A stretch of 64,000 nt of DNA. Source: Cliona cf. orientalis (Eukaryota; Porifera; Demospongiae; Clionaida; Clionaidae). Under the pieces are notes generated by a model that searched no databases, had not been told where the DNA came from, and was given only the letters and a program-made list of their open reading frames with translations. The stretch lies in NCBI GenBank assembly GCA_963930775.1, contig OZ005697.1, forward strand, positions 6,594,292-6,658,291, written 5' to 3'. The translations under genes were made by a program, and so were the position numbers. Below are positions 37,497-64,000 of this stretch, piece by piece (the first letter of the stretch is position 1; each line of letters begins with the position of its first letter).

Positions 37497-40400
37497 ATGG
37501 GAGCTATGGATCACGACTGGTTCATTTTTACTAGACACCTGTTACTGTTCCTCTTGGTGTGTGCTGACTCTGCAAACAGCCAAGTACACTACTACATCAC
37601 ACCCTCACTGAGCGTTCACTGTCCTGGAGATCCCTGTCTTACTCTACCACAGTTTGCTGCTGATTCCACCAGCTACCTTGGCAATGAAACCAGCATCTTT
37701 CTATCCTTTCTACCAGGAAATCATAGTTTTGATAGAGAGCTCTCAATATCTCATGCAGTAAATTTCTCAATGATAAAGGACATAGGAAGCAATGGAATTG
37801 TATTTGTAGAATGTGGTAGTCAGTCAGAAAGGTTCAATATCAATCAGACAATGTTTGCTAATATACAGAGTCTGCATTTCATTGGCTGTGGAAGTAACAC
37901 TGTTAGCCAAGTTGAGCAGTTGATAGTTAAAGACACCATCTTTGAGGGTGTGGAAGGCAGAGGCACAGCATTAGTGCTGAATGAAGTGACTGATGCTAGC
38001 ATTACAAAAATTTCTTTCCTTTCTAATGCACATGGTGGCATATTACTTAAACGTGATGATGGCCCAAATTTTACGAGTAATCAAGATATATTAGATTATC
38101 TCTATCTAAATCGAAATTCATCATTTGCAGTTGGTGGAGCATTGCATGTTTTCCATAGCAATATTTTTATCATTAACAGCAAATTCACTGAAAATACAGC
38201 TGATATAGGAGGAGCACTGTTGGCTTATAATAGCAGTCTCCATATTATCGGAAGCACTTACAGCTACAACAAGGCTGATTTTGGCGGAGTCATGATCACA
38301 TCAGAATCCACAGTCAATATCAAGGATAGCATTTTCAGTGAAAATGCAGCTGGGATCTATGGTGGAGTGATGATAACATATAGAGACTCATTCAGTGTCA
38401 GCTGTACCACTGTTACCAATAATACTGCTGGTGATAGTTATGGAGTAATGATGACATTTGAATCATTATTAAACATAACAGATGCTATTTTCAGTGAAAA
38501 TACAGCTATGGTTTACTGTGGAGTGATTTATGCAGTGACTTCCCCCTTTAGTATCACCAGCAGTACTTTCACTAAAAACAATGCTTTTTTTGCCTCGGTC
38601 ATGGATATACTCAATTCGTCACTATCAATCATCAGCAGTACTTTTACTAACAATGCAGCAGCTTTTATGGGTGGTGTCATGATTACATCTGATTCTATAT
38701 TTGAAATTGCCAACAATATTTTCACCAACAACAATGCTGCAGCTGGTGGTGCTATCATGGTCGTAAATGACTCATCATTTAATATCATCAGCAGTACTTT
38801 TACTAACAATAGTGCAAGTGATAACGGCATCATGATCACATATGATTCATCATTTAGTATTGCTAATAGTACTTTTATTAGCAACAGTGTAGATGGTTTA
38901 GGCAGTATCATGTTCATATCTGGTTCTTTATTTAATATTACTGGCAGTGAGTTTACTAGCAATGTAGCAGCTAATGCTGGTGGTGTCATAGCCACAGATT
39001 ATGGTTCGTCATTTAACATTACCAGCTGTCGTTTTATTAACAACAATGCTGCATTTGGCAATGGTGGTGTCATGAATGCAACTAACTCATCATTTAATAT
39101 CGTCCGCAGTGTTTTTCTAAACAACAGTGTACTTGTTGCTGGTGGTGTCATCAGCACATTGAGGTGCACATTTAGCATTACAAGAAGTGCTTTTAATAAT
39201 AGTGCGGCTTAAGCTGGTGGTGTTGTTTATGCATCCGTATCCTCATTCAACATTACAAGCAGTGCTTTTAGCAATAATAGTGCGGCTTTAGGTGGTGGTG
39301 TTGTTTATGCATCCGTATCCTCATTCAACATTACAAGCAGTGCTTTTAGCAATAGTGTGGCTTTAGTTGGTGGTGTTATTCGTGCATCCGTATCCTCATT
39401 CAACATTACAAGCAGTGCTTGTAGCAATAGTGCGGCTGCAGCTGGTGGTGTTGTTTTCACGTCTGTATCCTCATTCAACATCGTAAGCAGTATTTTTATT
39501 GACAACACAGCTTTTGCTGGTGGTGTCATAGCCACAATTACAGATTCATTATATAATATTTTTAGCAGTATTTTTATGAATAATATTGCAGCTAATGATA
39601 GTGGTGGTGTCATCATCACAGATGATTCATCTTTTAATGTTACCAATAGTGCTTTTATTAACAACAATGCAGGTACTAGTGGTGGTGTCATGATCACATT
39701 TGATTCATCTTTTAATGTTACCAACATTGCTTTTATTAACAACAGTGCAGGTGTTGGTGGTGTCATCATCACATCTAATTCATCATTTAGTATCTCCAGT
39801 AGTACTTTTACTAACAACAGTGTAGCTACTCTTGGCGGTGTCATGTACACATCTGGTTCCTCACTTTATATCGCCAGCAGTTTGTTTGTTAACAATACAG
39901 CAGCTGGTGGTGGTGGTATCATAGCCGATGGTTATGATTCTATAATCAGCAGTGCTAATGCAGCAGCTTCTGGTGGTGGTGACTCATATTTTAATGTTAC
40001 CAACAGTGTTTTTATTAACAACAGTGCAGGTATTGGTGGTGTCATGTTCACATTTGATTCATCGTTTAGTATCACCAGTAGTACTTTTGCTAACAACAGT
40101 GTAGCTACTATTGGTGGTGTCATGTACACATCCGGTTCCTCACTTTATATCGCCAGCAGTTTGTTTGTTAACAATACAGCAGCTGGTGGTGGTGGTGTCA
40201 TAGCCGCTGGTTATTATTCTATAATTAGCAGTGCTAATGCAGCAGCTTCTGGTGGTGGTGACTCATATTTTAATGTTACCAACAGTGTTTTTATTAACAA
40301 CAGTGCAGGTATTGGTGGTGTCATGTTCACATTTGATTCATCGTTTAGTATCACCAGTAGTACTTTTGCTAACAACAGTGTAGCTACTATTGGTGGTGTC

Positions 40401-43400
40401 ATGTACACATCCGGTTCCTCACTTTATATCGCCAGCAGTTTGTTTGTTAACAATACAGCAGCTGGTGGTGGTGGTGTCATAGCCGCTGGTTATTATTCTA
40501 TAATTAGCAGTGCTAATGCAGCAGCTTCTGGTGGTGGTGTCATGGTCACAGGAAATGGTTCATTCTTTATCATTATCAACAGTAGCTTTATTAACAATAG
40601 TGCTGCTCATGTTGGCGGTGTCGTCGCCTCAGTGTTTTGCTCATTTAATATTATAAGCAGTGTTTTTACTAATAATACAGCTGGTGTCATAGCCACAAGT
40701 AATATAGATTCATTGTATAGTATTTCCAGCAGTATTTTTGACAATAACAGTATACTTGGTGGTGGTGTTATTGGTGCATACAATTCAGCATTTAATTTTA
40801 CCAATTGTACTGTTACTAACAACAGCGCAAGTACTGGAGGAGGTGGTGTCGCATTGGCTGGTAATTCATCATTTACTATTATTGGCAGCAGTTTTTATGC
40901 TAATAAAGCTAACATCCTTGGAGGAATAATGGTCTGCCTTGAATGTTCAATCCTCATTACTGACAGCATATTTGGTCATAATTCAGGATCTCTCTACATT
41001 TTGGATACCAATCTCACTTTCAGTGGCTACACGAGATTTGAGAGCTGTGCAGAACCAAATAAAAGAGCAGATGGTGCCTACGCAGAACAACAAGAAGGAG
41101 GAGCAATCACAAGTAATGTCCAATCAACTGTGATTTTTTCTGGAGTAAGTAGTTTGTCAAATAACAAAGCAGGGCGTGGTGGAGCAATATTAGCAGCTGA
41201 GAGTACAATCTTGATGTATGGTGAAATAACAATAGACAATAATACAGCCACAGCCAGCAGTGGAGGTGGTATTTCTCTCCATCAAAGTGATCTTGAAGTC
41301 AGGGGAAACTGTATCATCTCTGATAACTGTGCTATGACGAGGGGTGGTGCAATTCATGCCACTAGTTCAACTATCGCTGTGTATCAACCATGGACTCTTC
41401 AATTAGTCGACAACAGAGCAAAAAATGGAAGTGGAGTATATTTAGAAGCTAGCGCCAAACTGTATATATTAAAATTTACTACCGGTTTTGAACACTTAGT
41501 AGTGTTCCGAGATAATGATGCTATGTATGGAGGAGCCATATACTTAGCAGATGATACCAACTCCGGCACTTGCTCATCTGGTAATGAATGTTTCATTCAA
41601 ACACTTGCAATCAATCAAGATGTCAAATTAAATAGTATACATGAATTAATAAGCATACTCTTTTCTGGTAATACAGCCAGTGAAAAAGGAGCCAACCTCT
41701 TCGGAGGACTACTGGACAGATGCATCCCAAGTCAATTTGCTGAAGTGTACACAATGCAAAGAATATATTACAGTGGTGTTAATTACCTCGGCAATATCAG
41801 CAACATAGCGGCAATAGATACCATATCCTCTCTGCCTGTTCGAATTTGCTTTTGTAAGAGTGAAAATGAAAGTGAACCAGACTGCAGCTACCAGCCACCA
41901 ACCTTCAAAGTCAAGAAAGGAGGAACATTGACTGTGCCACTTGTTGCAGTGGATCAGGTCAATCATTCTGTTGCTGCAAACATCATCAGTTCTCTATCTT
42001 CACAAGATGGTGGTTTTAATGAAGGACAGCAAGCTCAAAGTGCAGGGAGATACTGTAGCAATGTAACATTCAATGTGTTCTCTCCACACAATTCTGAAAC
42101 AATAAATCTTTATGCTGATGGTCCTTGTGGAAATTCAAGACTATCCTCCCGACAACTATATATAGAGTTCACTGACTGCACTTGTCCAATTGGCTTTCAG
42201 CCTTTTGCCAGCAATACAAGATGTGAATGCGATTGTGACTCAAAATTGTCTCGCTACATCACTGACTGCAACGCCACAACTGAATCCCTTGTGAGAGTGA
42301 ACACTAACTCATGGATCACTCACATCAATGACACTGACCCACCTGGCTATATAATTCATCCAAACTGCCCTCTCGATTACTGCCGACCTCCAACTGAAAA
42401 TATCAGCATGAATCTCAATCTTCCTGATGGATCCGATGCACAATGTGCTTATAATCGTAGTGGAATTTTATGTGGAGTTTGTCAAGAACATTTCAGCCTC
42501 TCCCTAGGTAGTTCACGTTGCTTATTGTGTCACAGTTACTGGCCTGTAGTGTTTGCCGTCATCCTCATAGCCACCATCATAGCAGGAATCTTGTTGGTTA
42601 CTGCACTGTTAGTCCTCAACATGACAGTAGCTATAGGACTGATCAATGACTTTATCTTTTATGCTAACCTCGTAGCAGCTAATAGTGCCGTCTTTTTCCC
42701 ATCATCAGAGCCCAGCTTTCCCACAGTATTCGTCGCCTGGCTTAATCTGGACATAGGAATTGATGTATGTTTCTTTGACGGTCTTGATGCATACACCAAC
42801 GCCTGGCTTCAGCTGGCATTTCCAATCTACATTATCTCTCTAGTGATTGTCATAATCATAGTCAGTGAGAGCTCCCCTCGATTTGCTAGACTAATTGGAA
42901 AGAGAGACCCAATTGCAGCACTAGCTACTCTAATCCAGCTATCTTATGCCAAACTTCTCTCAGTGACTATCACAGCTCTATCATTTGCTGTTCTTAATTA
43001 TCCCGATGGCTCACGAGTGACTGTATGGCTTGCCGACGGAAATTTGCCATATTTTCAAGGAAAGCATGTAGCTCTTGCCCTTGTTGCCTTGTTGATAATT
43101 GTAGTTGGTGTTCCCTACACCATTCTTCTATTTCTGTGGCAGTGGATTGTTCGTGCTCCAAAGTGGAAGGTTTTTAAGTGGACAAGGAACACTAAGCTCA
43201 ATGCCTTTATCTCTGTCCATCATGCTCCATACAACAATATATATCGCTACTGGACTGGTTTGCTTCTGTTTTTGAGAGTGGTTTTGTATATCACTATTTC
43301 AGTTACTGTGTCTGGGGACCCTGAAACGTCACTGTTAATGACATTCGTCTTAGTAGGGAGCCTCTCTTTTGTAAAAGAAATCACAGGGGCAAGGGTGTAT

Positions 43401-43793
43401 AAAAACTCATTCTTGAACATTGTTGGGGCTATGCTGTACTTTAATCTTCTTGCATTGTCTGGATTTAGTTGGTACCGATTCAAAGCTGACTTCAGGAAGC
43501 AAACAGCTGTTGCCTACTCCTCTACCATCATAACCTTCATCCTTCTGGTTGGAGTGATTATCTATCATGTGTATTTACTGGTCAGAAAGGATCGTCACCG
43601 GAGAGAATTTGAAGAGGAGCATGAGTACCTCCAACTGGCTCCAGTTCAACCTGCTACAGCTGAAGTGACTTACTCTATTGTTGAAATCCCCAAGCCTTGT
43701 GATCAGTCTCCACAGCTGCCAGCAGATTATGATGTCGATGACAAGATTGAGGTTAGGGAATTGCTTTGCACCGAAACTATTGGATATCAGTAA
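37497..43793 (+). CDS. Giant Pmp-like beta-helix / polytopic membrane protein, copy 1 (one in-frame stop)
   Basis: A single frame of 2,098 codons without introns, broken only by TAA at 39210-39212 (codon 572). It starts with a signal peptide (HLLLFLLVCADSANS, cleavage before QVHYY). Residues ~110-1300 are ~24-residue repeats of the FxNN..A..GGV type, with SSFNI..S.F between, as in Chlamydia-type polymorphic outer membrane proteins, which form right-handed beta helices. Dense N-x-S/T sites suggest heavy glycosylation. A Cys-rich segment (residues ~1560-1680, with CGVCQEHFSLSLGSSRC) precedes about seven or eight hydrophobic helices from residue ~1681, then a ~75-residue cytoplasmic tail with EYLQL and VTYSIV. 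It looks like a cell-surface receptor or channel-like protein; the ligand is unknown. If the stop is real, the product is a 571-residue secreted fragment. Confidence 0.85.
39979..40536 (+). repeat. Two near-identical 279-bp (93-codon) internal repeats
   Basis: The segment starting GACTCATATTTTAATGTTAC at 39979 recurs at 40258, 279 bp later, with almost no differences. Each encodes four Pmp-type rungs ending in an unusual SSANAAASGGG linker. The period is a multiple of three, so the frame is kept. Copy 2 of the gene has no such doubled block. This points to very recent unequal exchange or slippage inside the coding region. Confidence 0.9.
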
Positions 43794-45520
43794 TTTGGAC
43801 CATGCATAAAGATATAATAATCTCATGATTACTACACAAATTAAATTTAACCTAAAGTTAATTCTATATATTGATCTGATTACTCTGTAAGTGTATATCA
43901 GGTTTTTTTTGGTCCAATAACACAAACTTGATTATCAATGTCTCATCACCTCTGGTGGTCTGTTTTAAACCACCACTTCTGCTTTCATTGATATTGCTTG
44001 AAATAGCACCCATGCTCTTTTAATATCTAATTTGGTGGTTCAAATAATTCACACATAAAAATTTTGCTTTAGCTAGAGTATCCAAAATTATTAATAATTT
44101 TACCATTGACAATCAATAAAATTAAGAACAAGAAAATGTTGACATTTTAAAAATAGAGCACTAAACTTCAAACTCTCAGCACAAGGGACATGGACATTGA
44201 AGTACGTGCAGCACTGGCTGTGTCTCTCTAAGGAGCCACTTCCAAACTATTTTTGGAAAAATTAATGTCATTGAGATGTGATAGGGAAGGGGGTTGAGGC
44301 CATCATTTACTAGTATAGTATACACTATAATATTATAGCTACATTGTACTATAGTATACTGTAGCTTACGAGGGACTCAAAGTTAATGTCACAATGATAT
44401 TATTTTTTCTAAAATTAGTTTGGAAGTGCCACTATTAAAAGTAATTCCTGTGATTAATTTTCCAGTCGTGTGGATGATCCAGAAGCTAGCCTTCAGAGAC
44501 TACAAAGTTTTGTGGGCTCCTTACACCCAATTTTGGGATATTACCACATGCTATGATTCTCCTCTTTGAATAATCTTCAGTTTTAATTGGACTCAGTGAC
44601 TCTATGAGCTATGGTTATACCATTATTATGCAAAAACTATTATTAAATTATGCCTAATAACTGCAAGAAAGTAAAATGCTACTGGAGATACTAGGAAAGA
44701 CTCCCTCTCAGTGAGCAGGTCAAAGGGTACATGAATATAACTGGAATATTATCATTCTAAGACCATAGCGATACTATAAGAGCCACCTAGATATCAAGCA
44801 TAATATAGCTGTGCTGACTAATTCAAATTCCCTGATAATAATAACAGTCTCCATTGTTTAGCTGAACCTAGACCAAAATTGATTATTCAATGGTATATGT
44901 GCACATGGGATAGTTTATCTATTCATCTGTGGTATATACAATGTTATATCCCGTTACTATGCTGTTGCTAAGTAAAATATATGCCATATTGCACTAACCG
45001 CAAACTCATATTGCACTAACCGCAAAGTCATATTGCACTGTCAAATGCACTTCAGGCAAAAATATTGCCGAGGATCAAGGAAGAGCCGCTTCTTCAGCGA
45101 TTCTGTGGGGCTCTGTAAAGCTGTATTAATGGAGCGTGTAGCAGAAAGAATGGCAGGAAAAAGCACAAAGCTGTTCGAAGCAATGGGCGGAGTCGTATCT
45201 TCAATCGGTCGCGAGTTTACACAGACTGAGAGCTACATACATACCAAGGTAAGCTTACCGTGTAGAAGCTTTGGCATGGCAATAGGTATCCTTGCTTCTG
45301 CGCTAGGCAACAGCTTGAGCGACGAATATCAGATTCTGAACTCGATGGTGCTTATCACGCGATTGAGTTTAGTGTCGATTTGACCACACCCCTCAGCCAC
45401 GGGGCGCTCTAAAGAACGATCGACGTTCGAGAGCTGACTGAGAGAGCGGCTTAGTATAGACTGATACGACCAAGATGAGTTGTTCTTTTCAGTATCCATG
45501 GTAGCTAATGCCCACGGGAT
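43794..45520. other. 3' flank and spacer with one MITE-like inverted repeat
   Basis: Inverted blocks GCCACTTCCAAACTATTTTT (from 44235) and AAATTAGTTTGGAAGTG (to about 44434) bound a ~200-bp MITE-like element. A duplicated phrase CATATTGCACTAACCGCAAA occurs near 44980-45030. The 116-codon open frame at 45033-45383 shows no homology I recognise and no exon context, so I do not call it a gene. Confidence 0.45.
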
Positions 45521-45521
45521 A

Positions 45522-45655
45522 TAAAATAGTTATATCACGTACACTCGGGATGTATGGCATTTATTGCACTCAGCCCTCGGGCCGCTTTGCGCCCTCGTGC
45601 TTTGGTGCAATAAATCCCATACATCCCTCGCGCCCGTGATATAACTATTAGTAAT
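45522..45655. mobile_element. Short foldback element
   Basis: ATAGTTATATCACG and CGTGATATAACTAT, together with GGGATGTATGGCATTTATTG against CAATAAATCCCATACATCC, form a hairpin of about 125 bp. Non-coding. Confidence 0.65.
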
Positions 45656-46516
45656 ACGTGCTGTATATTTCCACCTCGTATTTAGTAGGCCCAAAATAAC
45701 CCCTGAGACATGGATGATTAATGTGATAAGCATTAAATTTTAATATGTTCAAATTTAGGAACTATGATATCACTACAATGATGTTAAACACATCATTGAT
45801 CCCATTATATTAGCTAGGACAATGACGCAAGGATTAATCAATACTCAAAATTTAATGTATGTATAGGGGAACATAATAGTCTTCAAAGTAGTCATAGGTT
45901 TATAAATGTCACAAGGAATAGTGTGGGAAAAGGGGGCACTGACCATAGATGAGCTAGTCTATGTAAACAGGATTGGAAACCGCTCACGTGGGCAATACAT
46001 GCATTCTTGGACAGTCCCTTTGCCATGACAAAATGACGATCACAATGCACTTATCAACTGATATATGCACTGACCATGCAACTGGGCTTTTCGGTCGTGA
46101 TAATACCCTCTTCTGTGTACTAATTAAGCCTCCATGCATTTATGCCTCCATTCTCATTAATAACCATAAAATCCCGCAATAATGCCATCCCCTTTCTATA
46201 TGCGGGATCATTGCATTTCCATGTAATGGTGTGGGCGTGAATGCCGCGTGGGGTGCACAATCTCAGTACTTTCTCTGGCTGTTTAACTCGAGAAAAACAA
46301 CAAAGGCATAAATATGGCACAGATTACTGGTGCGCTACATGTAGCTGTAGCTTCTGTTTTTATTGGCTTTTGGGCTCTAATATCTACATTTTACTGTCAG
46401 AGAGGGGGGTTATATGCGAGACAAAACTACCTATGTACGAACTTGAGTTGCAATGAGCTAAAAGTGTAGGGGGGCTTATGCGCAAAGGGGGAGCTAATTG
46501 TGGGATTCTACAGTAC

Positions 46517-46879
46517 CAGGAGCATATGAGCCGCCCGAAGGGCGGCGAAGGAGCGTCCGACTGCGTGTCCGATGTGTTAGGCGAAGTTCATTAGCAGTGC
46601 TTGACCTTATATGGAGTGGCCAGCTGCAGGGTATTTCCATTGGTTAAGCTCCATAGTGATAGCGCCGCCCGTAGTACACAGTCCACAACCACACTACAGA
46701 CTAAGTCAATTAGCTAGTACAGTGTGGCTTGTACAAAAGTAATCTGCTATGCACCACACCAGCTGCACGTTCCAAATAAGGAAGTGTAGCCTTAAGGACT
46801 TCGCCTAACACATAGTACAGCCAACCCTACGGTAGTCGGACGCTCCTTCCCCGCCCTTCGGGCGGCTCATATGCTCCTG
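46517..46879. mobile_element. 363-bp hAT-like MITE with 7-bp target duplication
   Basis: The ends CAGGAGCATATGAGCCGCCC and their inverse extend about 45 bp (GAAGGAGCGTCCGAC inside). ACAGTAC is repeated directly at 46510-46516 and 46880-46886. The CAGG.. terminus and 7-8-bp duplication suggest a hAT relative. Internal inverted TGTTAGGCGAAG/CTTCGCCTAACA adds to the foldback. Confidence 0.8.
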
Positions 46880-47099
46880 ACAGTACTTATACGTACTTGC
46901 AGCACTGCTCAAGCATATACATCAGTTTTAGCTAGTAATGTACTGGCAGCTATGGTGCCCAGGCTACTAACTACTGGTTAGAGGGTTTTTATCAGCCCGG
47001 ATAAGTTGCAGAAGGAAGGTGGTTTACAGTTTGAAGGTGAAATTTGACCTAAGCACCCCAGAAGAGACATGAACATTATAAATGAGGTTAAACTGTTGT

Positions 47100-47815
47100 T
47101 TATTGGGGTGAGCCTGAGTGAGCCCCACATAATCAGTAAAGCTATGCGTGAATTGTATTTCAAGCTAGATTCTTTTTATTCAAAGAAATTATGTTATTAC
47201 CGGTATGCCTGTGTATTAATTTGCATACAAGTAAATACATAACATCATTACTAATACCGGTACTGTACCATTATGAAAGAGGGCGCACTACGAAATATTG
47301 GCCCACCCCACACTTTGGGCTCAATTTCCTGAAACAGGCATGAAAGTTTCTGTGATGACCTAAACTTAATTATGCACTTGCTACTCCTAGACCATGCACT
47401 GACTCTGGAACAATTTGGGGGGACCATTGACAGCGTGCCAGACCACAAGGCTCAGATCTACAATGAATGCACTTGAGTGCAGAAGCCTCACCGCTACATG
47501 CATGCATGACCCATGCACATGTATTGCATGGCTCACTCTGTATGCTAGCTTGTTTAATATGAGGAGTATTGAACTACATACCCTGCACCTGAACATGGTT
47601 ATGGTACTAATATTATTATAGTATGACAGCTCCAGCACTCACCTTTCCGGTTGCAAGCGTGTATGCACGTGACGCCCATCACCTTACGTGTTGAAAATTT
47701 AACTCTCTCCTCACTGAAATAATCATTGTGATAATATTATGTATACGCATAAAGAACCGCTTCCTGTCTTTCGTGTTCTTGGGGCTCGCTCAGGCTTCAA
47801 TGTTCGCCCCGAATT
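47100..47815. mobile_element. Non-autonomous element with GGGGCGAGCCTGAGCGAGCCCC ends, copy 1
   Basis: GGGGTGAGCCTGAGTGAGCCCC near 47104 faces GGGGCTCGCTCAGGCTTCA..CGCCCCGAATT near 47790-47815. The 3' portion (ATTTAACTCTCTCCTCACTGAAAT, then ACCGCTTCCTG) is shared with the element ending at 51388. No convincing open frame. Confidence 0.55.
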
Positions 47816-47835
47816 ATTTTAATCCTATGTGATTA

Positions 47836-48255: not shown

Positions 48256-48343
48256 TTACAATGTTTGAAACATCCAGCTTTACCCAAAAAGTATTATAGC
48301 TGCTCCATTCATCCATTATAATAGTAAATATCTTCATTTTCAG

Positions 48344-48422
48344 ATGCTACTCTTTCCCACTCTGACGATGAGTATGCCAGTGATGATAACATTATGATAG
48401 AGAATGGAAATCATGCAACATA
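48344..48422 (+). CDS. Possible orphan 3' coding exon
   Basis: A good acceptor (TTCATTTTCAG) is followed by a short phase-2 frame encoding an acidic Ser/Asp-rich peptide (LSHSDDEYASDDN..) that ends in TAA at 48420-48422. The composition looks coding, but I found no upstream exon with a matching donor. It may be the end of an unrecognised gene or a remnant. Confidence 0.25.
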
Positions 48423-51388: not shown

Positions 51389-51513
51389 CACTTGGATGTT
51401 TTACAAGGTCTTCATACTAGCTGCTGGGAACGAATAATACATCAATCTTCATTATGCATGGCCCAGATATCAAAGATACTAGCCTAATGCATGCTCAATA
51501 CCGTTTATATTTT

Positions 51514-51640: not shown

Positions 51641-52125
51641 AAAAATAACCCCCCATACAGTATCGTAGGGATCTTCATAGCTAGTATTTTCTATGTTCAG
51701 GTCAGAACTGTTTATACTATCTTTGAGCACAAAATTCTGCAAAGAAAAAAGTCCAGGTTTATCAAATTCTGGTTCTTTTAGAGGGGAATCAGATATAATT
51801 TCATTACTTCAGCTTTACAGCATCTAATTCCTTAAAATCTCAAAATATTATGAGTTAAAAATTATTGTATGAAGAGGTTGCTTTGTGGTGTGCTCATGTA
51901 CCGCAATTCACGTATATGTTTTCATGATTCCATGCAGTAAGAGTCATAACCATATCATGTTCTTCACACGCTGGAGAAGGTGGCTCCATTAGCTTACGAA
52001 TCATGCATCTATGAACTAGTGGACAACCAGGTCAGATATGATTCTGCTGCTATAACGACTGATTACCCCAAGAACTATTATTTGTTCTAATTTGCAGCTT
52101 GACAGGGCAATCAGTGTTGCTAAAG

Positions 52126-52662
52126 CAGAGCACAAGATAACAGCCAGCCATCGGCCATTTTCTGTACATTTCAACCAGATAGCCACTCAAGCCACATCTT
52201 GGTCAGTCATATCATATAGTGTCCAGGCAAAACTTCCAAAGCTATAAAACTACCAGTATGGTTTGGATAGAAATATCTACTCTCATTTAATATGATTTAT
52301 ACAGTCTACTAGAATTTTAAGACTTACTTTTTATATCAAAAAACGAGCAAACGAGCTCCTTTGCAGTCGTTCTTGCTGTTTGTTTGATTTCTCAGTAGCC
52401 AAACACGATAAGTCGAAGTGCAATTGTTGTGCAAGAAGTCCACGTGTACCTGTGGTTACACTAATTGACCTTGTTTGTGGGTTCCTAGTACAGCCCACAA
52501 GCTCTTGACAAGTTGTACTCCCAGTTGTACAAGCATAGACTAGGGATAGCAAGGGATCTGGACTCAGTGGCATGTTCTAGCAAATGGAGCAAATGACCGA
52601 CCAACTTGGGAATTGATTGGCCATCATGGCCACCCATTTTGAAAACCTTATTTTGTCCTCTG
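52126..52662. mobile_element. Transposon inserted in pseudo-exon 10
   Basis: Ends CAGAGCACAAGATAA and TTATTTTGTCCTCTG are inverted with two mismatches. The target is visible intact in functional WDPCP (TTGCTAAAGTTACTTC). Direct repeats of CTAAAG, extendable to TGCTAAAG by shared bases, flank the element, which fits a 6-8-bp duplication (hAT-like). The boundaries are ambiguous by two bases. Confidence 0.75.
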
Positions 52663-52818
52663 CTAAAGTTACTTCTGATTGTAAGTTCATATCCAAGTGT
52701 TTGAAGGACTGTATTGATAGATGCTAGTATCCATCATAATGTGCCCATAGCCAACATCGTTGTATGTGAGAGGAATAAAGATGAGACTAAACTACTCATT
52801 GGCTGCGAGAATGGAACG

Positions 52819-52925
52819 CTCAGGGGCGTAGCCAGGATTTCTTTAACAGGGGGGCTTAGTATAGAAAAGGAGTGCACACGTATGGCACGCAGCCCGCTGA
52901 GCCCTATGCTAGCTACAACCCTGAC
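52819..52925. mobile_element. Short insertion with CAGGGGCGTAGCCAGGATTT end in pseudo-exon 11
   Basis: Functional WDPCP reads GGAACGCTGGTGAG. Here about 105 bp lie between ..AACGCT and ACGCTGGTGAG. The insert starts CAGGGGCGTAGCCAGGATTT and ends CCCTG, with ACGCT repeated on both sides. That start is a common hAT-type terminus in animal genomes, as I recall it. Confidence 0.7.
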
Positions 52926-53290
52926 GCTGGTGAGTTTGTGCATGCATCTGCTGTACGTTGTGTACAGATATATGTGACAGTGATAGCTGCACAATACATG
53001 TGCTGTACTAAGTGTTTTGCATTAATGATCCATGGTATCGTTCATGTCAGGGGTTCCCTAGAGCCAAAAGTTCTTCTACAGGTTCTTGGATTAAGTAGCT
53101 GTTGTACGTTAATTAGCTAGCAGTGTTCAGTAATATCTTTGATAAATTCATTACTATTAAAGCCTCAGATGTAGTCCACAGGATATATTCTCTAGAGAGC
53201 TCTAATTGTTTTAGTGTCATGTGATTGTAAGAGTGATCTTGTCTCCTATGTACCTACATATACAGTGTACATGTACTTATGCAGGTACAT

Positions 53291-53369
53291 GTAGCCTCGT
53301 CCCCAGGCCACTCCCACGTTTTCAATGTGTAACATTGAAAACGTGGGAGTGGCCTGGGGACGAGGCTAG
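53291..53369. mobile_element. Perfect foldback hairpin
   Basis: TAGCCTCGTCCCCAGGCC..ACGTTTTCAATG and its exact inverse form a hairpin of about 38-bp arms around two bases. It is absent at the matching place of functional WDPCP (32680-32700). Relatives with GCCTCGTCCCCAGG lie at 33983 and 54228, and looser ones at 33870 and 54105. Confidence 0.85.
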
Positions 53370-55999
53370 GTACATGTACAAAATTATTAGGCTGTGTCCA
53401 TGTTGAAGAGTATGAACTGGAGTTTCCAGCCGTCCGAGTGTTTCAGTTGTTTCACTCTCATCATGGATCACCTCCTAATCCAACCACTCTCAGCCATCAC
53501 TGAAGATATGTACATATACGCACAAACATGTACATGTACATTACCTAGACACGTACATGTACATGTACATGTATGTACATGTATGTGTATGTTAGCTATT
53601 GTTCAAATGTTTGCTCAAATGTACATGTACTGTAAGTATTAATGATTTTTCGGAGTTGATCCTATGAAACTTACATATAACAGTTATGTTCCCATATCCA
53701 AAATTTAATGGTTGTCTTGTGTATATGTGTCTGGTGCATTGTTGTGGGAGAGGGTTGATGTTCCCATCAAAAAGAGTTATGCACCATATGTAGCCTCCCA
53801 TGAGTAAGCATCCCCTAAGGTATTATTTTAATTACCACACCCACTTAAGTAAAGAAAGGACCCAGCAGCCAAAAACTGATGCGGGTGGGCCTGAGAAGCT
53901 AATATTTTTTTTTTGCCTGGCCTTATGATTCTTTCCTGCCTCTCTCTCTTGTAGCTCAAATGGAATCCACTCTCTCTGAATTTACTGACACTGTTCCTTC
54001 CATCAACAAGCAAATATACAACACATACCATGCTCATATCACTAACTTGTCACGAAGATTCTTTCATTTATTACTGAGGTAATGTCAGTACTGTACCTGT
54101 AGTCTCATCTCCAGGCTCTCTCTCTTTTTATTTTGTACGTACCGGAGAGGAAGAGCCTCGGGATGAGGCCACTGTAAATGTATGTACCAGCCCTAGCCTA
54201 GTTCCGAAATTAATAATAATAGCCTCGTCCCCAGGTCACTCCCATGTTTTCGAAGTTACATATGGTATGTGTGCATATACCTGATAAGGCACTGGGATAG
54301 TTTTCTCTCGGATTCTAAAAGATAGTATTCTTGAACTTGTACAGCATACAGTGTCCCGGGCAAGCGCCCACTCCCAGGATAAGCACCCATGTACCGCATT
54401 TCAAGGGGTCAATGTACATATGTAACAGCGGGCCAACATCGCGATTTATGTTTTTAAAAGTACCCATGCATGAGCACTTACCCGGGACACTACAGTACAT
54501 GTATTCATGCACGTCTAATATGACGTTGTACATACATGTACATGTAATATGCGTTTATACATTTTCCTTAACATAAAGTGTTGTACATGTACATGATCTT
54601 TGTTAAGTTTGAAAGCTATGTACATATACTATGGACAGATACAAAAGACTGGAGAAAGCATTTAAAGTTGCAAAAGGATCGGGGCAAAGGATTTATTCAT
54701 GGTATGACTCGGTGAATTGTGTATTAAATCTAATATCACTAATAATTCCGAAAAATTCTCCATACACATTACCTTGCAGGATGTGCACTACATGGCTAAC
54801 TTGGGGGACTTGGGTGAAAACAGACTAGCTGACTCAGCAAAGGAGTATGCTAAGAAAGCCGCTAGTGATTTTGTGTCAGGTATGTATGCTCACATGTTGA
54901 ATAATTATTAATTTTTAATAATACTATTATACAATTCCATGCAAAATTTGAAGTACACTGTAATTATTGGAAACAGTACCATGATATTGTAACTGTAGAT
55001 AATTAAATTTTCTCGTTATCACTATTATAATGCAGATGTGCTCCAGGTGATGGAGAACATTCTCTCCCGGGAGAACACACCTAAACACCGACCCTCCTCT
55101 CTGGCTAGGTCGCAGTCGAGCTGGCAGAACAGACCTACTCGTGCCATTGATGCCCAGGTGGCAGTGAACTGGGGGGGAGGGAAACCATCCTGGGAGGCGG
55201 GGACTCTGATGAAGAGATGGGAGGAGTATTTGGCCGTGCGAGACACACCAATCTGCTATCGTTTGACTCCATAGGGGGCAGCTTCAGGGCTGCTTTGCTT
55301 ATGGAACAGGCTATATACTGCTTTTGAATCAGGTAAAGCATTACATGTAATTTGTGTGTGTGTGTGTATACACGTGCATGTCTGAAGTAGAGTTCCTGAG
55401 TTTGTTAACCTCCAATTGAAACATATACCCTTCCATTTAAGACTTAGTATCCCCCTCCATAGGAGATTGCCACTTCCCAATGAAGCAAATATAGATGTAG
55501 TATACACACCTGTAGGTTGGGATTTGATTGCGAGACATTTATGATTATGGGGCTTTTCAAGCTATATTGCAAATCTAATGACAACTGACTGCATACATAA
55601 TACTTATGTATGCGTTTGATCGCAGTGGCGGATCCAGGTGTAGTGCTTAGAGTGCCTGGCTACCACCCTAGGATCCAAAGATGATCATGTAATAACTATC
55701 ATGTACATGTATGTATAATAATAATAATTGTAGGATTTTAGTTGTCCATCCATCTGATTGATGTAGCCATGTGGATGTCATAAATGCACATGGTCAATAG
55801 TTCTAATTTTTTCACTCAATCTGAAGAACGGAAGTGTAAGACTTAGAAAAAATTCGAGAAAGAAGAAAAAATTAGAGTCTCTACTGTGAGATTCGAACCT
55901 GCTGCCTTCCGTTCCACACCACTGTTGTCGCTGCTGGCGGACCTAATTTTATTTGTTTTAAAGATAACCGTCGAGACTAACCCTGTGAACTATACTTGT

Positions 56000-56530
56000 G
56001 CGATCTTTGTAATTACGCAAACGCCACATATGTGGCTTATTGGTGCAACGGCATAGAATACGGATAGATTCTGGTAAATATTGGCGTATCTGCTGACTGT
56101 ACATACCAGACTCTCTCTCCTTCCCCTCCCCAAAGGGCTAACTTTGTGTCTTCCAGTTTCACAAGCCAAGCACATATGCAGGCTTTATTGCGGCACAGCC
56201 CATTAGCTAACACTATTTATTATCAAGCACTCAGGCATGAACACAATGACTGTACTCCTCTGCCAGTTAGTTTATTCACACAACCATGCAGTCACATCAT
56301 GCACATGCAGAGAGCTGACTACCACATAGTGGGAAACTTTGTAATTACGCAAACGCCACACATGTGGCTTATTGGTGCAATGGCATAGAATACGGATAGA
56401 TTCTGGTAAATATTGGCACATCTGCTGACTGTATGTACCAGACCCTATATTCTCCTCCCCCTCCCCAAAGGGCCTGAGCACAAGGCTAACTTTGTGTCTT
56501 CCAGTTTCTAAAGCCAAGCTCATATGCAGG
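56000..56530. repeat. Family D tandem repeats in the second block (left part)
   Basis: It contains a full and a partial unit of the repeat described at 36150-36862 (AACGGCATAGAATACGGATA, GCCCATTAGCTAACACTATT). Family D continues at 58030-58850 after a ~1.5-kb stretch that has no counterpart in block 1. Confidence 0.8.
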
Positions 56531-56631
56531 CCTCTCATTTAAGCTCCCCATGCAATACTATATTATTGCCAATGATTATAATTGGGTATGCAGCAGCCGT
56601 GCGAGCTGTGCCAGCAAAGTACAAGACTTAG

Positions 56632-56960
56632 TAGTAATGGGCGGTATTGGAAATAGTAGCTGATGGTATGTTGTACAGAAAATATTGCGGTATCACGGTA
56701 TCCACGGTATGTGGGATATATAATATGGTAATACATGTATATACGCTAAAATTTGATAATCAAGCATTAATGGCTACAACATCGGTAGTTTTTGAATCTG
56801 ATCATACAAATTTATAGGGCGATTTGTAGATTATACTCTCATTTATTACGGATGGAAGAAAATTATGATGGCAGATACGGTATCACGGTATTTGTATCGT
56901 TTAACGGTTAATAATCAATACCTCGGTATCACGGTATGGAAGGTATATTGCCCATTACTA
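56632..56960. mobile_element. 329-bp hAT-type MITE with 8-bp target duplication
   Basis: TAGTAATGGGC and GCCCATTACTA are the ends. AGACTTAG is duplicated exactly at 56624-56631 and 56961-56968. The interior contains several GGTATCACGGTAT blocks. An 8-bp duplication is typical of the hAT superfamily. Confidence 0.88.
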
Positions 56961-56968
56961 AGACTTAG

Positions 56969-58030
56969 TACAAGGAGTACACATAAGAGCACAAATTGAC
57001 ATTTTGCAGAGTTTCATCCAGTGGGGGAGCAGGGGGGGGAGCTTCCCCCTTAAAACACCCAGCTTCCCCCCCAAAAGAAAGAGAGAAAGAAGAAAAGAGG
57101 AAAAGGAGAGAGAGAGAAAGAAAGAGAGAGAAAGATGCATGGTAGGGGAAGGGGAGCATGTATATAATATAATATTTTTGCGTCGCATTGCAAGTGATCA
57201 GCATAGTCTCCTACTTCATGACTCAATTATTTAAGAGCACTAGATCAAACTATGCAATACCTCAGTGACATCAGAAAACATAATCATTAATCCATATCAA
57301 AGCTTAATTGGGGGAGGGGTCACGGTGCGTGAAACTGCCATGCCCACTTCTTCCCCAAAATTTCTTTCTGGACGAAACCCCGCGAAAATACTAAACAGAG
57401 GCATAACTGGGATGGGCTGAAAAATTTGCACTTTTAATTTAGGCTATGCTAGCCAACATAGCCATGGAAAAAAAAACCTCTCCAACAAAACCTCATTTTT
57501 TGAGGAAAATAAGAGAGGAAAAAATCCGAAATAAAAACATCCCAGGCTAAGCAATATTAACGATAACAGGGTCACAGATTAGCCATTCCAGTCCACCTGG
57601 ATCAGCTGCACATTGGTATCTGTTCCGGTAGAATTGCCCTGCATGTCAATCCTGCACACTTCTGCATTAAACTCAAAGACATTGCACTGCCATAGTATGC
57701 ATATAGCTATACATACATTCAACATGTACATTCTAATGTAACATTACCTTTGCTGGACAGCAATGAGAATAACCGTTGCGAGAGTGACTACCTCTGGCCC
57801 TGCAGCCGCTTTTAATACCTGCACACCAGCCCTGGCCAGTCTAGAGCAGCAGCTGCCCCCCACCAGTGCCGTTCTCCAGGAATGCAATAATTATAGCTAG
57901 CTTCTTGCCGCCTCCCGCCAGACAACGCGTGAGTGTGGGCATGCGCACACACGACAATTGCATGCGGTACATTGCAACAATAAGACTTAGAGCTTATTTT
58001 CTGTCTAATTCGCTTCGCTTCAAATGACAG
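56969..58030. other. Block-2-specific insertion, no gene recognised
   Basis: Together with 56531-56623 and the preceding MITE, this stretch interrupts family D repeats and is absent from block 1. It has a GA-rich run (57078-57135) and poly-G/poly-C patches near 57030-57070. I see no coding exon. GTGAGTGTGGGCATGCGCAC near 57930 shows nothing further. Confidence 0.4.
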
Positions 58031-58850
58031 AAAATATACTTTATTGCGGCATAGCCCATTAGCTAACACTATTGATTTTATTATCATTCACTCAGGCATG
58101 AATATAATGACTGTACTCCTCTGCCAGTTAGTTTATTCAGACAACCATGCAATCACATCATGCACATGCAAGCACATGCAGAGAGCTGACTACCGCATAG
58201 CGGGAAACTTTGTAATTACGCAAACACCACGTATGTGGCTTATTGGTGCAACGGCATAGAATACGGATAGATTCTGATAAATATTAGCGCATCTGCTGAC
58301 TGTACATACCAGACCCTCTCTCCTCCCCCTCCCCAAAGGGTCTGAGCACAAGGCTAACTTTGTGTATTCAGGCTTTATTGCGGCACAGCCCATTAGCTAA
58401 CACTATTTATTATCATTCACTCAGGCATGAACATAATGACTGTACTCCTCCGCCAGTTAATTTATTCACACAACCATGCAGTCACATCATGCACATGCAG
58501 AGAGCTGACTACCGCATAGCGGGAAACTTTGTAATTACACAAATGCACATGTGGCTTATTGGTGCAACGGCATAGAATACGGATAGATTCTGGTAAATAT
58601 TGGCGCATCTGCTGACTGTACATACCACACCCTCTCTCCTCCCCCTCCCCAAAGGGCCTGAGCACAAGGCTAACTTTGTGTATTCAGGCTTTATTGCGGC
58701 ACAGCCCATTAGCTAACACTATTTATTATCATTCACTCAGGCGTGAACATAATGTCTGTACTCCTCTGCCAGTTAGTTTATTCACACAACCATGCAGTCA
58801 CATCATGCACATGCAGAAAGCTGACTACCGCATAGCGGGAAACTTTAGGG
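58030..58850. repeat. Family D tandem repeats in the second block (right part)
   Basis: Three successive unit ends read GACTACCGCATAGCGGGAAAC (58190, 58506, 58823). The units are about 316 bp, slightly shorter than in block 1. All the short repeated open frames here are repeat products. Confidence 0.85.
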
Positions 58851-59483
58851 AGGTTTCTAATATTATTATGATGTTTGGAGATTTTGGTTAGATCACCAAA
58901 TTATAAGCTTACCAATTGAACATAATGTATGAGCGTCTATAGCAATAACCATTCATATTGCTATAATATAATAATTAAACTTCATCGATACCAATGGAAA
59001 GCTACTGTAACAATGTATTTTTGCCAAATTTACCCTGCTATATGCATGTGCATGCAATAACATGCCATGGCATGCATGATCGAGGGCAATCAAACACCTC
59101 ATGAGGCAAATATAACTACATGTATGATGAAAGGGTGTATCAACATGCAGTAGCTATATAAGCATGTAAAGAATAACTGCCCTCCTCCACTGATTGTTTA
59201 GTTCAGCCATACAAACAGTGTACAATCATGCACAGTGGTTAGATATCATTCAGCTATGATTGGGGTGATCAAGCATGCAGCCCGTGACAGATATTGCTGT
59301 GCAGGTTATGGTACACATTAATGTTATTCTGGTTGCCAATGCGTCACCTTGAAATGTGCAAGTATAAAAACTTAATCAATGCACAGTTTGCTATGCTGAG
59401 TCGATTAGCTACAGTCCGTTCTTGATCTGAACTGCAGTGCGCAAAAATAATCATCATTTTTGACGGATTTGACCTGTATTCAA
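58851..59483 (+). promoter_or_regulatory. 5' flank and core promoter of beta-helix gene copy 2
   Basis: It is closely similar to 36863-37496, with TATAAAA at 59363-59369 about 115 bp before the ATG. The segment just before the ATG is shorter than in copy 1 because a ~25-bp stretch is missing. Conservation of both TATA box and start suggests that both promoters could work. Confidence 0.5.
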
Positions 59484-62400
59484 ATGGGAGCTATGAATCA
59501 CGACCGATTCACTTTTACTAGACACCTGTTACTGTTCCTCTTTGTGTGTACTGACTCTTCAAACAGCCAAGTACACTACGACATCACACCCTCACTGAGC
59601 GTTCACTGTCCTGGAGATCCCTGTCTTACTCTACCACAGTTTGCTGCTAATTCCACCAGCTACCTCGGCAATGAAACCAGTATCTCTCTATCCTTTTTAC
59701 CAGGAAATCATAGTTTTGATCGAGAGCTCTTAATATCTCATGCAGCACATTTCTCAATGACAAAGGATATAGGAAGCAATGGAATTGTATTTATAGAATG
59801 TGGTAGTCAGTCAGGAAGGTTCAATATCAATCAGACAATGTTTGCTAATATACAGAGTCTGCATTTTATTGGCTGTGGAAGTAACACTGTTAGCCAAGTC
59901 AAGCAGTTGATAATTAAAGGCACCATCTTTGAGGGTGTGGAAGGCAGAGGCACAGCATTAGTGCTGAATGAAGTGACTGATGCTAGTATTACAAAAACTT
60001 CTTTCCTTTCTAATGCACATGGTAGCATATTACTTAAACGTGATGATGGCCCAAATTTTACGAGTAATCAAGATATGTTAAATTATCTCTATCTAAATCG
60101 AAATTCATCATTTGAAGTTGGTGGAGCATTATATGTCTCTCTTAGCAATGTTTTTATCGCTAGCAGTAAATTTACTGAAAATATAGCTGATATAGGAGGA
60201 GCACTGATGGCTTATAATAGTCGTCTCTATATTGTTGGAAGCACTTACAGCTACAACAAGGCTGATTTTGGCGGAGTCATGATCACATCAGAATGCACAA
60301 TCAACATTAAGGATAGCATTTTCAGTGAAAATACAGCCAGGATCTATGGTGGAGTGATGATAACATATAGAGACTCATTCAGTATCAGTGGTACCACTTG
60401 TGCCAACAACACTGCTGATAATAGTTATGGAGTAATGATGACATTTGAATCATTATTATGCATAACAGATGCTATTTTCAGTGAAAATACAGCTAAGACT
60501 CACTGTGGTGTGATTTATGCAGTGACTTGCCCCTTTAGTATCACCAGCAGTACTTTCACTAAAAACAATGCATCTTTTTCCTCGGTCATGAATATACTCA
60601 ATTCCTCATTAAAAATCATCAACAGTGCTTTTACTGACAATGCAGCAGCTACTATGAGTGGTATCACAATTACATCTGATTCCATAGTTGAAGTTGCCAA
60701 TACTATTTTCACCAACAATAATGCTGCAGTTTGTGGTGCCGTCATGGACGTAAAATATTCATCATTTAATATCATCAGCAGTACTTTTATTAACAACAGT
60801 GCAGGTGATAACGGTATCATGAGCATAAGTCATTCATCATTTAGTATTGCTAATAGTACTTTTATTAGCAACAGTGTAGATGGTTTGTGCAGTGTCATGC
60901 TCATATCTGGATCTTCATTTAATATTACTGGCAGTGAGTTTACTAGCAATGTAGCAGCTGATAATGGTGGTGTCATAGCCACGATAGATTATGGTTCATC
61001 ATTTAATATTGCCAGCTGTAGTTTTATTAACAACCATGCTGCAGCTGGCAGTGGTGGTGTCATGCACATAACTAACTCATCATTTAATATCGTCCGCAGT
61101 GTTTTTTTAAACAACAGTGTATTTGTTACTGGTGGTGTCATCAACACATTAAAGTGCTCATTTAGCATTATAAGTAGTGCTTTTAATAATAGTGCGGCTG
61201 AAACTGGACTAGGTGGTGTTGTTTATGCATCCGTATCCTCATTCAACATTACAAACAGTGCTTTTAGCAATAGTGCGGCTACAGGTGGTGGCGTTGTTTA
61301 TGCCTATGTATCCTCATTCAACATCGCAAGCAGTATTTTTATTAACAACACAGCTTTTGTTGGTGGTGTCATAGCCACAGATACAGATTCATTATATAGT
61401 ATTTCTAACAGTATTTTTATGAATAATGCAGCTAATGTTGGTGGTGGTGTCATCATCACATTTGATTCATCTTTTAATATTATCAATAGTGCTTTTATTA
61501 ACAACAGTGCAGTTGGTGGTGGTGTCATGGCCACATATAATTCATCATTTAGTATCGCCAGTAGTACTTTTGCTAACAACAGTGTAGCTACTATTGGTGG
61601 TGTCATGTACACATCTGGTTCCCCATTTTATATCGCCAGCAGTTTGTTTGTTAACAATACAGTAGCTGGTAGTGGTGGTGTCATAGCCAGTAATGGTTCA
61701 TCATTTGATATAATCGACAGTGCTTTCAATAACAACGCAGCAGCTACTGGTGGTGGTGGTGTCATCATCACAGGTGATTCATATTTTAATGTTACCAATA
61801 GTGTTTTTATTAACAACAGTGCAGGTGGTGGTGGTGTCATGATCACATTTGATTCATCATTTAGTATCGCCAGTAGTACTTTTGCTAACAACAGTGTAAC
61901 TATTTTTGGTGGTGTCATGTACACATCTGGTTCCTCACTTTATATCGCCAGCAGTTTATTTATTAACAATACAGTAGCTGATAGTGGTGGTGTCATAGCC
62001 GCAGGTAATGGTTCATCACTTGATATAATTGATAGTATTTCCAGCAGTATTTTTATCAACAACATTGAAGCTGCTGGTGGTGTCATTATTACATACAATT
62101 CAACATTTAATTTTACCAATTGTACTTTTGCTAACAACAGTGCAAGTAGTGGTGGTGTCGCATGGGCTGGTAATTCATCATTTACTATTATTGGCAGCAG
62201 TTTTTATGCTAACAAAGCTAACTTTGTTGGAGGAATAATGATCAGCTTTAAATGCTCAATCTTCATTACTGACAGCATATTTGGTCATAATTCAGGATCT
62301 CTCTACATTTTGTATACCAATCTCACTTTCAGTGGCTGCACGAGATTTGAGAGCTGTGCAGAACCAAATAAAAGAGCAAATGGTGCCTACTCAGAACTAC

Positions 62401-64000
62401 AAGAAGGAGGAACAATCACAAATGTTGTCCGATCGACTGTGACTTTTTCTGGAGTAAGTAGTTTGTCAAATAACAAAGCAAGGCGTGGTGGAGCAATATT
62501 AGCAGCTGAGAGTACAATCTTGATGTACGGTGAAATAACAATAGACAATAATACAGCCACAGCCAGCAGTGGAGGTGGTATTTCTCTCCATCAAAGTGAT
62601 CTTGAAGTCAGGGGAAACTGTATCATCTCTGATAACTATGCTATGACGATGGGTGGTGGAATTCATGCCACTAGTTCAACTATCGCTGTGTATCAACCAT
62701 GGACTCTTCAAGTAGTCGACAACAGAGCAAAAAATGGAAGTGGAGTATATTTAGAAGCTAGCGCCAAACTGTATATGTTAAAATTTACTACCAGTTTTGA
62801 ACACTTAGTAGTGTTCCGAGATAATGATGCTATGTATGGAGGAGCCATATACTTAGCAGATGATACCAACTCTGGCACTTGCTCATCTGGCAATGAATGT
62901 TTCATTCAAACACTTGCAATCAATCAAGATGTCAAATTAAATAGCACACATGAATTAATAAGCATACTCTTTTCTGGTAACACAGCCAGTGAGAAAGGAG
63001 CCAACCTTTACGGAGGACTACTGGACAGATGCATCCCAAGTCAATTTGCTGAAGTGTACGCAATGCAAAGAATATATTACAGTGGTGTTAATTACCTTGG
63101 CAATATCAGCAACATAACAGCAATAGATACCATATCCTCTCTGCCTGTTCGAATTTGCTTTTGTAAGAGTGAAAATGAAAGTGAACCAGACTGCAGCTAC
63201 CAGCCACCAACCTTCAAAGTCAAGAAAGGAGGAGCATTGACTGTGCCACTTATTGCAGTGGATCAGGTCAATCATTCTGTTGCTGCAAACATCATCAGTT
63301 CTTTATCTTCACAAGGTGGTTTTAGTGAAGGACAGCAAGCTCAAAGTGCAGGGAGATACTGTAGTAATGTAACATTCAATGTGTTCTCTCCACACAATTC
63401 TGAAACAATAAACCTTTATGCTGATGGTCCTTGTGGAAGTTCAAGACTATCCTCCCGACAACTGTATATAGAGTTCACTGATTGCACTTGTCCAGTTGGC
63501 TTTCAGCCTCTTGCCAGTAATACAAGATGTGAATGCGATTGTGACTCAAAATTATCTCGCTACATCACTGACTGCAACGCCACGACTGAATCCCTTGTGA
63601 GAGTGAACACTAACTCATGGATCACTCACATCAATGACACTGACCCACCTGGCTATGTTATTCATCTAAATTGCCCTCTCGATTACTGCCAACCTCCAAC
63701 TGAAACTGTCAGCATGAATCTCAATCTTCCTGATGGATCCGATGCACAATGTGCTTATAATCGTAGTGGAATTTTATGTGGAGCTTGTCAAGAACATTTC
63801 AGCCTCTCCCTAGGTAGTTCACGTTGCTTATTGTGTCATAGTTACTGGCCTGCAGTGTTTGCCGTCATCCTCATAGCCACCATCATAGCAGGAATCTTGT
63901 TGGTTACTGCACTGTTAGCCCTCAACATGACAGTAGCTGTTGGACTGATCAATGGCTTTATCTTTTACGCTAACATCGTAGCAGCTAATAGTGCCGTCTT
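59484..64000 (+). CDS. Giant Pmp-like beta-helix / polytopic membrane protein, copy 2 (runs off window)
   Basis: The frame starting at ATG 59484 (MGAMNHDRFTFTRH) stays open to the window end, 1,505 codons, cut off in the second hydrophobic segment. It has the same layout as copy 1: signal peptide, FxNN/GGV beta-helix rungs, Cys-rich block (CGACQEHFSLSLGSSRC) and the start of the membrane domain. Where copy 1 has GCT TAA, this copy reads GCT GAA ACT GGA CTA, so the stop is not shared. The repeat region is 227 codons shorter than in copy 1, an exact multiple of three. Many amino-acid differences lie in the repeats, while the membrane-proximal region is nearly identical. It is probably the functional member; its tail lies outside the window. 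Confidence 0.85.
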   Translation, partial: MGAMNHDRFTFTRHLLLFLFVCTDSSNSQVHYDITPSLSVHCPGDPCLTLPQFAANSTSYLGNETSISLSFLPGNHSFDRELLISHAAHFSMTKDIGSNGIVFIECGSQSGRFNINQTMFANIQSLHFIGCGSNTVSQVKQLIIKGTIFEGVEGRGTALVLNEVTDASITKTSFLSNAHGSILLKRDDGPNFTSNQDMLNYLYLNRNSSFEVGGALYVSLSNVFIASSKFTENIADIGGALMAYNSRLYIVGSTYSYNKADFGGVMITSECTINIKDSIFSENTARIYGGVMITYRDSFSISGTTCANNTADNSYGVMMTFESLLCITDAIFSENTAKTHCGVIYAVTCPFSITSSTFTKNNASFSSVMNILNSSLKIINSAFTDNAAATMSGITITSDSIVEVANTIFTNNNAAVCGAVMDVKYSSFNIISSTFINNSAGDNGIMSISHSSFSIANSTFISNSVDGLCSVMLISGSSFNITGSEFTSNVAADNGGVIATIDYGSSFNIASCSFINNHAAAGSGGVMHITNSSFNIVRSVFLNNSVFVTGGVINTLKCSFSIISSAFNNSAAETGLGGVVYASVSSFNITNSAFSNSAATGGGVVYAYVSSFNIASSIFINNTAFVGGVIATDTDSLYSISNSIFMNNAANVGGGVIITFDSSFNIINSAFINNSAVGGGVMATYNSSFSIASSTFANNSVATIGGVMYTSGSPFYIASSLFVNNTVAGSGGVIASNGSSFDIIDSAFNNNAAATGGGGVIITGDSYFNVTNSVFINNSAGGGGVMITFDSSFSIASSTFANNSVTIFGGVMYTSGSSLYIASSLFINNTVADSGGVIAAGNGSSLDIIDSISSSIFINNIEAAGGVIITYNSTFNFTNCTFANNSASSGGVAWAGNSSFTIIGSSFYANKANFVGGIMISFKCSIFITDSIFGHNSGSLYILYTNLTFSGCTRFESCAEPNKRANGAYSELQEGGTITNVVRSTVTFSGVSSLSNNKARRGGAILAAESTILMYGEITIDNNTATASSGGGISLHQSDLEVRGNCIISDNYAMTMGGGIHATSSTIAVYQPWTLQVVDNRAKNGSGVYLEASAKLYMLKFTTSFEHLVVFRDNDAMYGGAIYLADDTNSGTCSSGNECFIQTLAINQDVKLNSTHELISILFSGNTASEKGANLYGGLLDRCIPSQFAEVYAMQRIYYSGVNYLGNISNITAIDTISSLPVRICFCKSENESEPDCSYQPPTFKVKKGGALTVPLIAVDQVNHSVAANIISSLSSQGGFSEGQQAQSAGRYCSNVTFNVFSPHNSETINLYADGPCGSSRLSSRQLYIEFTDCTCPVGFQPLASNTRCECDCDSKLSRYITDCNATTESLVRVNTNSWITHINDTDPPGYVIHLNCPLDYCQPPTETVSMNLNLPDGSDAQCAYNRSGILCGACQEHFSLSLGSSRCLLCHSYWPAVFAVILIATIIAGILLVTALLALNMTVAVGLINGFIFYANIVAANSAV

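What the first reader, a model, noticed from the sequence alone, without database searches (positions are those of the whole stretch)
37497..64000. Paired giant surface proteins: bacterial-Pmp-like beta helix fused to a polytopic membrane domain
Both genes encode a signal peptide, about 1,200-1,400 residues of FxNN/GGV rungs, a Cys-rich block and at least seven hydrophobic helices. The repeats differ strongly between copies while the membrane-proximal part is nearly identical. That pattern, with in-frame length change and tandem copies, fits a variable recognition receptor, possibly for self/non-self or microbe sensing. The function is my inference.
Basis: partly seen in the sequence, partly recalled or inferred. 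Interest (0 to 1): 0.75.

Follow-up and report, generated by a model that had tools for sequence, protein, structure and literature searches.

The report
Giant beta-helix membrane protein family
Two neighbouring genes in an animal genome, probably a sponge's, encode very long rod-shaped cell-surface proteins anchored by a many-helix membrane domain; they belong to a large, clustered family whose rods grow and shrink by repeat units, and what the family does is unknown but it looks like a repertoire of surface receptors or adhesins.

The parts
37497..43793 (+). copy 1: single frame of 2098 codons interrupted by one in-frame TAA
37497..37967 (+). copy 1 signal peptide and N-terminal cap of the helix
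   Evidence: sequence; domain bounds
37968..40835 (+). copy 1 Pmp-type rungs (~26 aa each), including the indel zone
39210..39212 (+). in-frame TAA in copy 1
39701..40539 (+). three 279-nt tandem units (96% matches) inside copy 1 rungs
40836..41840 (+). copy 1 C-terminal, less regular rungs
   Evidence: bounds
41841..42536 (+). copy 1 juxtamembrane beta-sandwich-like part and Cys-rich NRSGxxCGxC module
42537..43586 (+). copy 1 polytopic membrane domain, nine hydrophobic segments
43587..43790 (+). copy 1 short tail, cytoplasmic side inferred
59484..64000 (+). copy 2, intact; frame continues to window coordinate 65093 (1870 aa)
61428..62036 (+). 1.9 copies of a 312-nt tandem unit inside copy 2 rungs
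63150..63842 (+). copy 2 juxtamembrane and Cys-rich part
   Evidence: landmarks
63843..64000 (+). start of copy 2 membrane domain, cut by the window end
   Evidence: landmarks
29875..36865 (+). upstream part of the segmental duplication, first copy (separate aligned blocks, 78-96%)
51821..58846 (+). upstream part of the segmental duplication, second copy

Best explanation
The genes are two members of a very large, clustered animal (probably sponge) family of cell-surface proteins. Shown by sequence and models: signal peptide, N-cap, right-handed parallel beta-helix of ~26-residue Pmp-type rungs, beta-sandwich-like segment, Cys-rich module, about nine membrane helices, and a short tail without a recognised domain. 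Inferred: the stiff rod stands out from the cell and presents a long Asn/Ser/Thr-rich face that binds glycans or proteins of microbes or of other sponge cells; the conserved multi-helix domain anchors it and passes on the signal or mediates uptake; diversity comes from gene duplication and gain or loss of rungs on a constrained scaffold, giving a repertoire of recognition or adhesion receptors. Copy 1, with its in-frame TAA, is probably not functional as a membrane protein if the stop is real.
Against: No ligand, expression or signalling evidence. Median Ka/Ks is below 1 in every domain (0.53 in the repeats); no test shows positive selection; 4 of 18 sliding windows between the copies exceed 1 on few synonymous changes, and the short tail exceeds 1 in 10 of 28 non-independent pairs, which is on the presumed inner side, not the binding face. 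The tail has no conserved signalling motif: the Tyr of an ITIM-like TYSIV in copies 1 and 2 is Phe or His in L025-L030. 16 of 148 long indels (63-67 aa) and 14 (38-49 aa) do not fit whole rungs. The membrane model is weak (mean pLDDT 59.6). Variation between individuals was not testable.
Confidence: 0.5

Rival explanations
1. Adhesive or structural surface proteins: the beta-helix rod is a spacer or glue (cell-cell or cell-matrix), rung number only sets its length, and the family is large because many cell types or sites need it.
For: Constrained rungs (median Ka/Ks 0.53), rung-sized length change, 58 and 44 N-glycosylation sequons in the two ectodomains.
Against: A nine-segment anchor at 0.86 mean identity with the lowest median Ka/Ks of the six domains is more than glue needs.
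Confidence: 0.27
2. The membrane domain is the business end, an ion channel, transporter or scramblase-like protein, and the solenoid is a tether or gate for mechanical or chemical input.
For: Nine hydrophobic segments, a basic loop between the fifth and sixth, and an uncharged stretch after the first; strongest constraint there.
Against: No Pfam row for copy 1's part and only weak rows for other members, none of a channel or transporter; no PDB sequence relative. The fold comparison did not test this part.
Confidence: 0.15
3. Mostly neutral birth and death of a duplication-prone family; sequence variation has no recognition role.
For: 16 of 84 and 10 of 77 membrane matches carry in-frame stops; copy 1 itself is interrupted; many frames in the C2 array are broken.
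Against: Low Ka/Ks in TM and juxtamembrane parts and many long open frames.
Confidence: 0.08

Closest known systems
Chlamydial polymorphic membrane proteins (Pmp; PF02415, TIGR01376)
   Same: FxxN and GGA/GGV tetrapeptides in ~25-residue beta-helix rungs; long solenoid; multi-copy and variable
   Different: Pmps are autotransporters with a C-terminal outer-membrane barrel (the barrel is recalled; of PMC11166332 and PMC10715098 only the starts of the abstracts were seen in a listing); here a eukaryotic signal peptide and nine hydrophobic segments
DUF7630 (PF24633)
   Same: The Cys-rich module just before the membrane helices resembles it: 32 genome places at 27.6-30.7 bits, flagged over the cut-off of 27
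   Different: Copy 1 shows no match; two of those 32 places scanned as whole proteins score 24.7 and 22.4, below 27, as do C2-array paralogs (24.3 at best); function unknown
Adhesion GPCRs
   Same: Very long ectodomain on a polytopic membrane domain
   Different: No GAIN, GPS or 7tm row; nine rather than seven hydrophobic segments
Right-handed beta-helix proteins (phage tailspikes, autotransporter passengers, alginate lyases and epimerases)
   Same: Same predicted fold
   Different: No membrane domain of this kind (recalled); no catalytic site was looked for here

Membership tests
Chlamydial Pmp autotransporters | FxxN / GGA(I,L,V) rung repeats | tested here: met
   PF02415 22.7 bits (cut-off 20.6) in copy 2, below it in both pieces of copy 1; TIGR01376 over its cut-off in 4 of 7 proteins scanned, all four relatives (L019, L025, L031, L032), no row for copy 1 or copy 2
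Chlamydial Pmp autotransporters | beta-helical passenger | tested here: met
Chlamydial Pmp autotransporters | C-terminal autotransporter barrel | tested here: not met
   C-terminal part is hydrophobic helices; no autotransporter row in Pfam
DUF7630 proteins (PF24633) | match over the Pfam cut-off | tested here: inconclusive
   none in copy 1; 32 genome places flagged over the cut-off, but two of them fall below it when scanned as whole proteins
Adhesion GPCR | 7tm_2 and GAIN/GPS domains | tested here: not met
   no such Pfam row at E up to 10 for three window pieces, nor at E up to 1 for 28 members
TRP / polycystin-like channels | homologous membrane domain | tested here: inconclusive
   no Pfam or PDB sequence match; the fold list covered only residues 1-113 of the model
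Right-handed parallel beta-helix superfamily | parallel solenoid with repeating strands | tested here: met
Sponge allorecognition / immune receptors | polymorphism tied to graft outcome or ligand binding | not testable with these tools
   one unnamed assembly only

The most novel reading that the evidence does not exclude
A sponge (or other early-branching animal) carries a receptor repertoire of some 170 to 200 gene places in an undescribed class: beta-helix ectodomains diversified by gain and loss of rungs, fused to a polytopic membrane domain that belongs to none of the known receptor or channel families, used to tell microbes or neighbours apart.
Probability: 0.35. Interest if true: 0.85.

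Novelty: new variant of a known kind. Interest (0 to 1): 0.6.

Why it matters
How sponges sort food bacteria, symbionts and foreign tissue is open. A large, clustered surface family with a rigid modular ectodomain that changes by rungs, on a membrane domain with no assigned function, gives concrete genes to test. It also shows Pmp-type rungs in an animal sitting on a helical membrane anchor rather than on a bacterial barrel.

Tried and rejected
Bacterial origin or contamination: the genes lie in a 217-Mb assembly with three Wnt loci; one pattern scan each of bacterial/archaeal genome contigs and of viral contigs found no relative of the membrane domain (102 and 71 stretches matched a pattern, none confirmed). 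Each scan used two short patterns and does not prove absence.

ITIM or YxxPhi signalling in the tail: TYSIV occurs in copies 1 and 2 and in some array members, but is Phe or His in L025-L030; rejected as a conserved feature.

GPCR membership: no Pfam row among 28 members. TRP-like membership: no Pfam row either, but left open. No known membrane fold appears in the structure list, yet that list covered only residues 1-113, so nothing follows for the membrane part, whose model is weak.

Weak Pfam rows (Str_synth, PIRT, PMT_4TMC, DUF7419, LapA_dom and others) were set aside; those shown with a cut-off are below it. TIGR04212 on copy 1 (37.4 of 295 bits) and copy 2 (27.6 of 295) is far below its cut-off.

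Literature: ten full-text searches listed no paper on this family, judged by titles and starts of abstracts of the listed rows only; DUF7630 had 0 papers. Passages of PMC12716839, PMC5620054 and PMC7385117 were seen by term search and did not describe it. That such proteins exist unnamed in sponge databases is recalled, not checked.

Absence of Cys-loop receptors as a sponge marker: no match, but no control rang either, so it says nothing.

A printed line ('12 counted by eye') is a wrong placeholder: rows with in-frame stops are 10 of 77.

Full report
What is in the window. The window is G000:C9:6594292-6658291 of a 217-Mb genome. Copy 1 starts at 37497 and its frame can be followed to 43793, 2098 codons, with one TAA at 39210-39212. 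Copy 2 starts at 59484; with DNA beyond the window its frame is open to 65093, 1870 aa, without a stop and with no intron needed. The two are 0.95 identical in the juxtamembrane and membrane parts, and 0.80 with 22% gapped columns in the repeats. The duplication is segmental: blocks from 29875 to 36865 recur at 51821-58846, 78-96% identical.

The family. Searching the genome with copy 1's membrane part gave 84 matches, the weakest at 7e-123, 83 of 1778 candidates scored; with a C2-array member, 77 matches, the weakest at 3e-128, 77 of 1720 scored. A 150-kb stretch of C2 holds 24 matching blocks, some short, 12 on each strand. Merged at 1 kb these are 170 places. Adding the 32 DUF7630 places (150 of 812 candidates scored) makes 200 on 19 contigs, 147 of them with a neighbour under 60 kb away. 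Two of the 32 lie in the fetched C2 array; two others were read: frames of 1266 and 1292 aa from the first Met, related to copy 2 by BLASTP over the C-terminal half (E 1e-61 and 9e-15), with 16 and 18 FxxN words; the other 28 were not read. Only the best candidates are scored by the tool, so more places are likely; but these are places, not working genes: 16 of 84 and 10 of 77 rows carry stops, and some rows are fragments.

How it varies. Six long relatives were fetched from the 84 rows, chosen for their open frames, and compared with copies 1 and 2, 28 pairs, two of the genes being near-identical. Mean identity / gapped fraction / median Ka/Ks: cap 0.78/0.03/0.44; repeats 0.65/0.36/0.53; C-terminal rungs 0.74/0.06/0.45; juxtamembrane 0.83/0.01/0.30; TM 0.86/0.00/0.23; tail 0.70/0.04/0.59. 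The tail (about 60 codons) exceeds 1 in 10 of 28 pairs, none of them with copy 1 or 2; I have no explanation. Of 651 pairwise indels 446 are 1-3 aa; of the 148 of 20 aa or more, 59 are 24-29 aa (one rung), 16 are 50-56, 18 are 77-81, 8 are 100, but 16 are 63-67 and 14 are 38-49; 74 of 148 lie within 2.5 of a multiple of 25.7 aa, where a uniform spread gives 19% (pairs are not independent). L025 and L026 are 99% identical in the repeats and differ by one 29-aa indel. Copy 1 holds three 279-nt units at 96%, and 11 of 29 copy 1 rungs and 7 of 20 copy 2 rungs are closest to a rung of their own gene. Between copies 1 and 2, Ka/Ks runs from 0.30-0.33 (juxtamembrane, TM) to 0.93 (indel zone); 4 of 18 sliding windows exceed 1 on few synonymous changes. 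This is a constrained scaffold changing by rung gain and loss, not demonstrated diversifying selection.

Whose genome. Ten Wnt matches fall in three loci (C4, C8, C19), so it is an animal with few Wnt genes.

Function. A large clustered family with a rigid exposed rod, modular length variation and a conserved multi-helix anchor fits a repertoire of recognition or adhesion receptors better than a single structural protein. Ligand, signalling and between-individual variation are untested. The stop in copy 1 would leave a product of 571 residues without the anchor; whether it is real, polymorphic or an assembly error cannot be told here.

Novelty. Beta-helix rungs, big lineage-specific receptor-like families and DUF7630 are known kinds; their combination here is not described in any paper that my ten searches listed. 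I call it a new variant of a known kind.

Noticed in passing
L008:1498-3306 (-), window coordinate 83206-85014, and a second piece at 90843-91457 (-): Divergent paralogs about 18 and 26 kb downstream of copy 2's end (the first 23% identical to copy 1 in the membrane part); the first is a 603-aa frame in which no beta-helix rungs are seen, i.e. perhaps a short-ectodomain version of the family.
   Followed up: partly
C2:3305000-3454999 (L009-L014, L016-L024): A cluster with 24 matching blocks in 150 kb, 12 on each strand, with many broken frames beside open ones such as L019:2188-6090 (-), 1301 aa.
   Followed up: partly
C1:12011246-12024553 and C1:12065856-12079173: Two pairs of family matches recur with a ~54.6-kb offset and equal scores: a recent large duplication or an assembly duplicate.
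   Followed up: no
tails of L025-L030: The short tail shows Ka/Ks above 1 in 10 of 28 pairs, unlike the membrane domain; about 60 codons, so weak.
   Followed up: no
window 2097-3188 (+): A 363-aa frame with weak septin- and AIG1-like GTPase matches, both below the Pfam cut-offs.
   Followed up: no
window 16433-17044 (-): Part of a sulfotransferase (Sulfotransfer_2, 77.2 bits).
   Followed up: no
L007:8587-9681 (+), L004:1384-2172 (+): A protein kinase frame upstream of the window and an ankyrin-repeat frame downstream.
   Followed up: no
L011:5974-8826 (-) and window coordinate 93287-94954 (+): Long frames that look like a LINE-type endonuclease/reverse transcriptase and a tyrosine recombinase; recalled motifs, not searched.
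   Followed up: no
window 58039-58846: A 316-nt tandem array (2.5 copies, 92% matches) just upstream of copy 2; related copies lie near 36477-36864 and 55966-56461.
   Followed up: no
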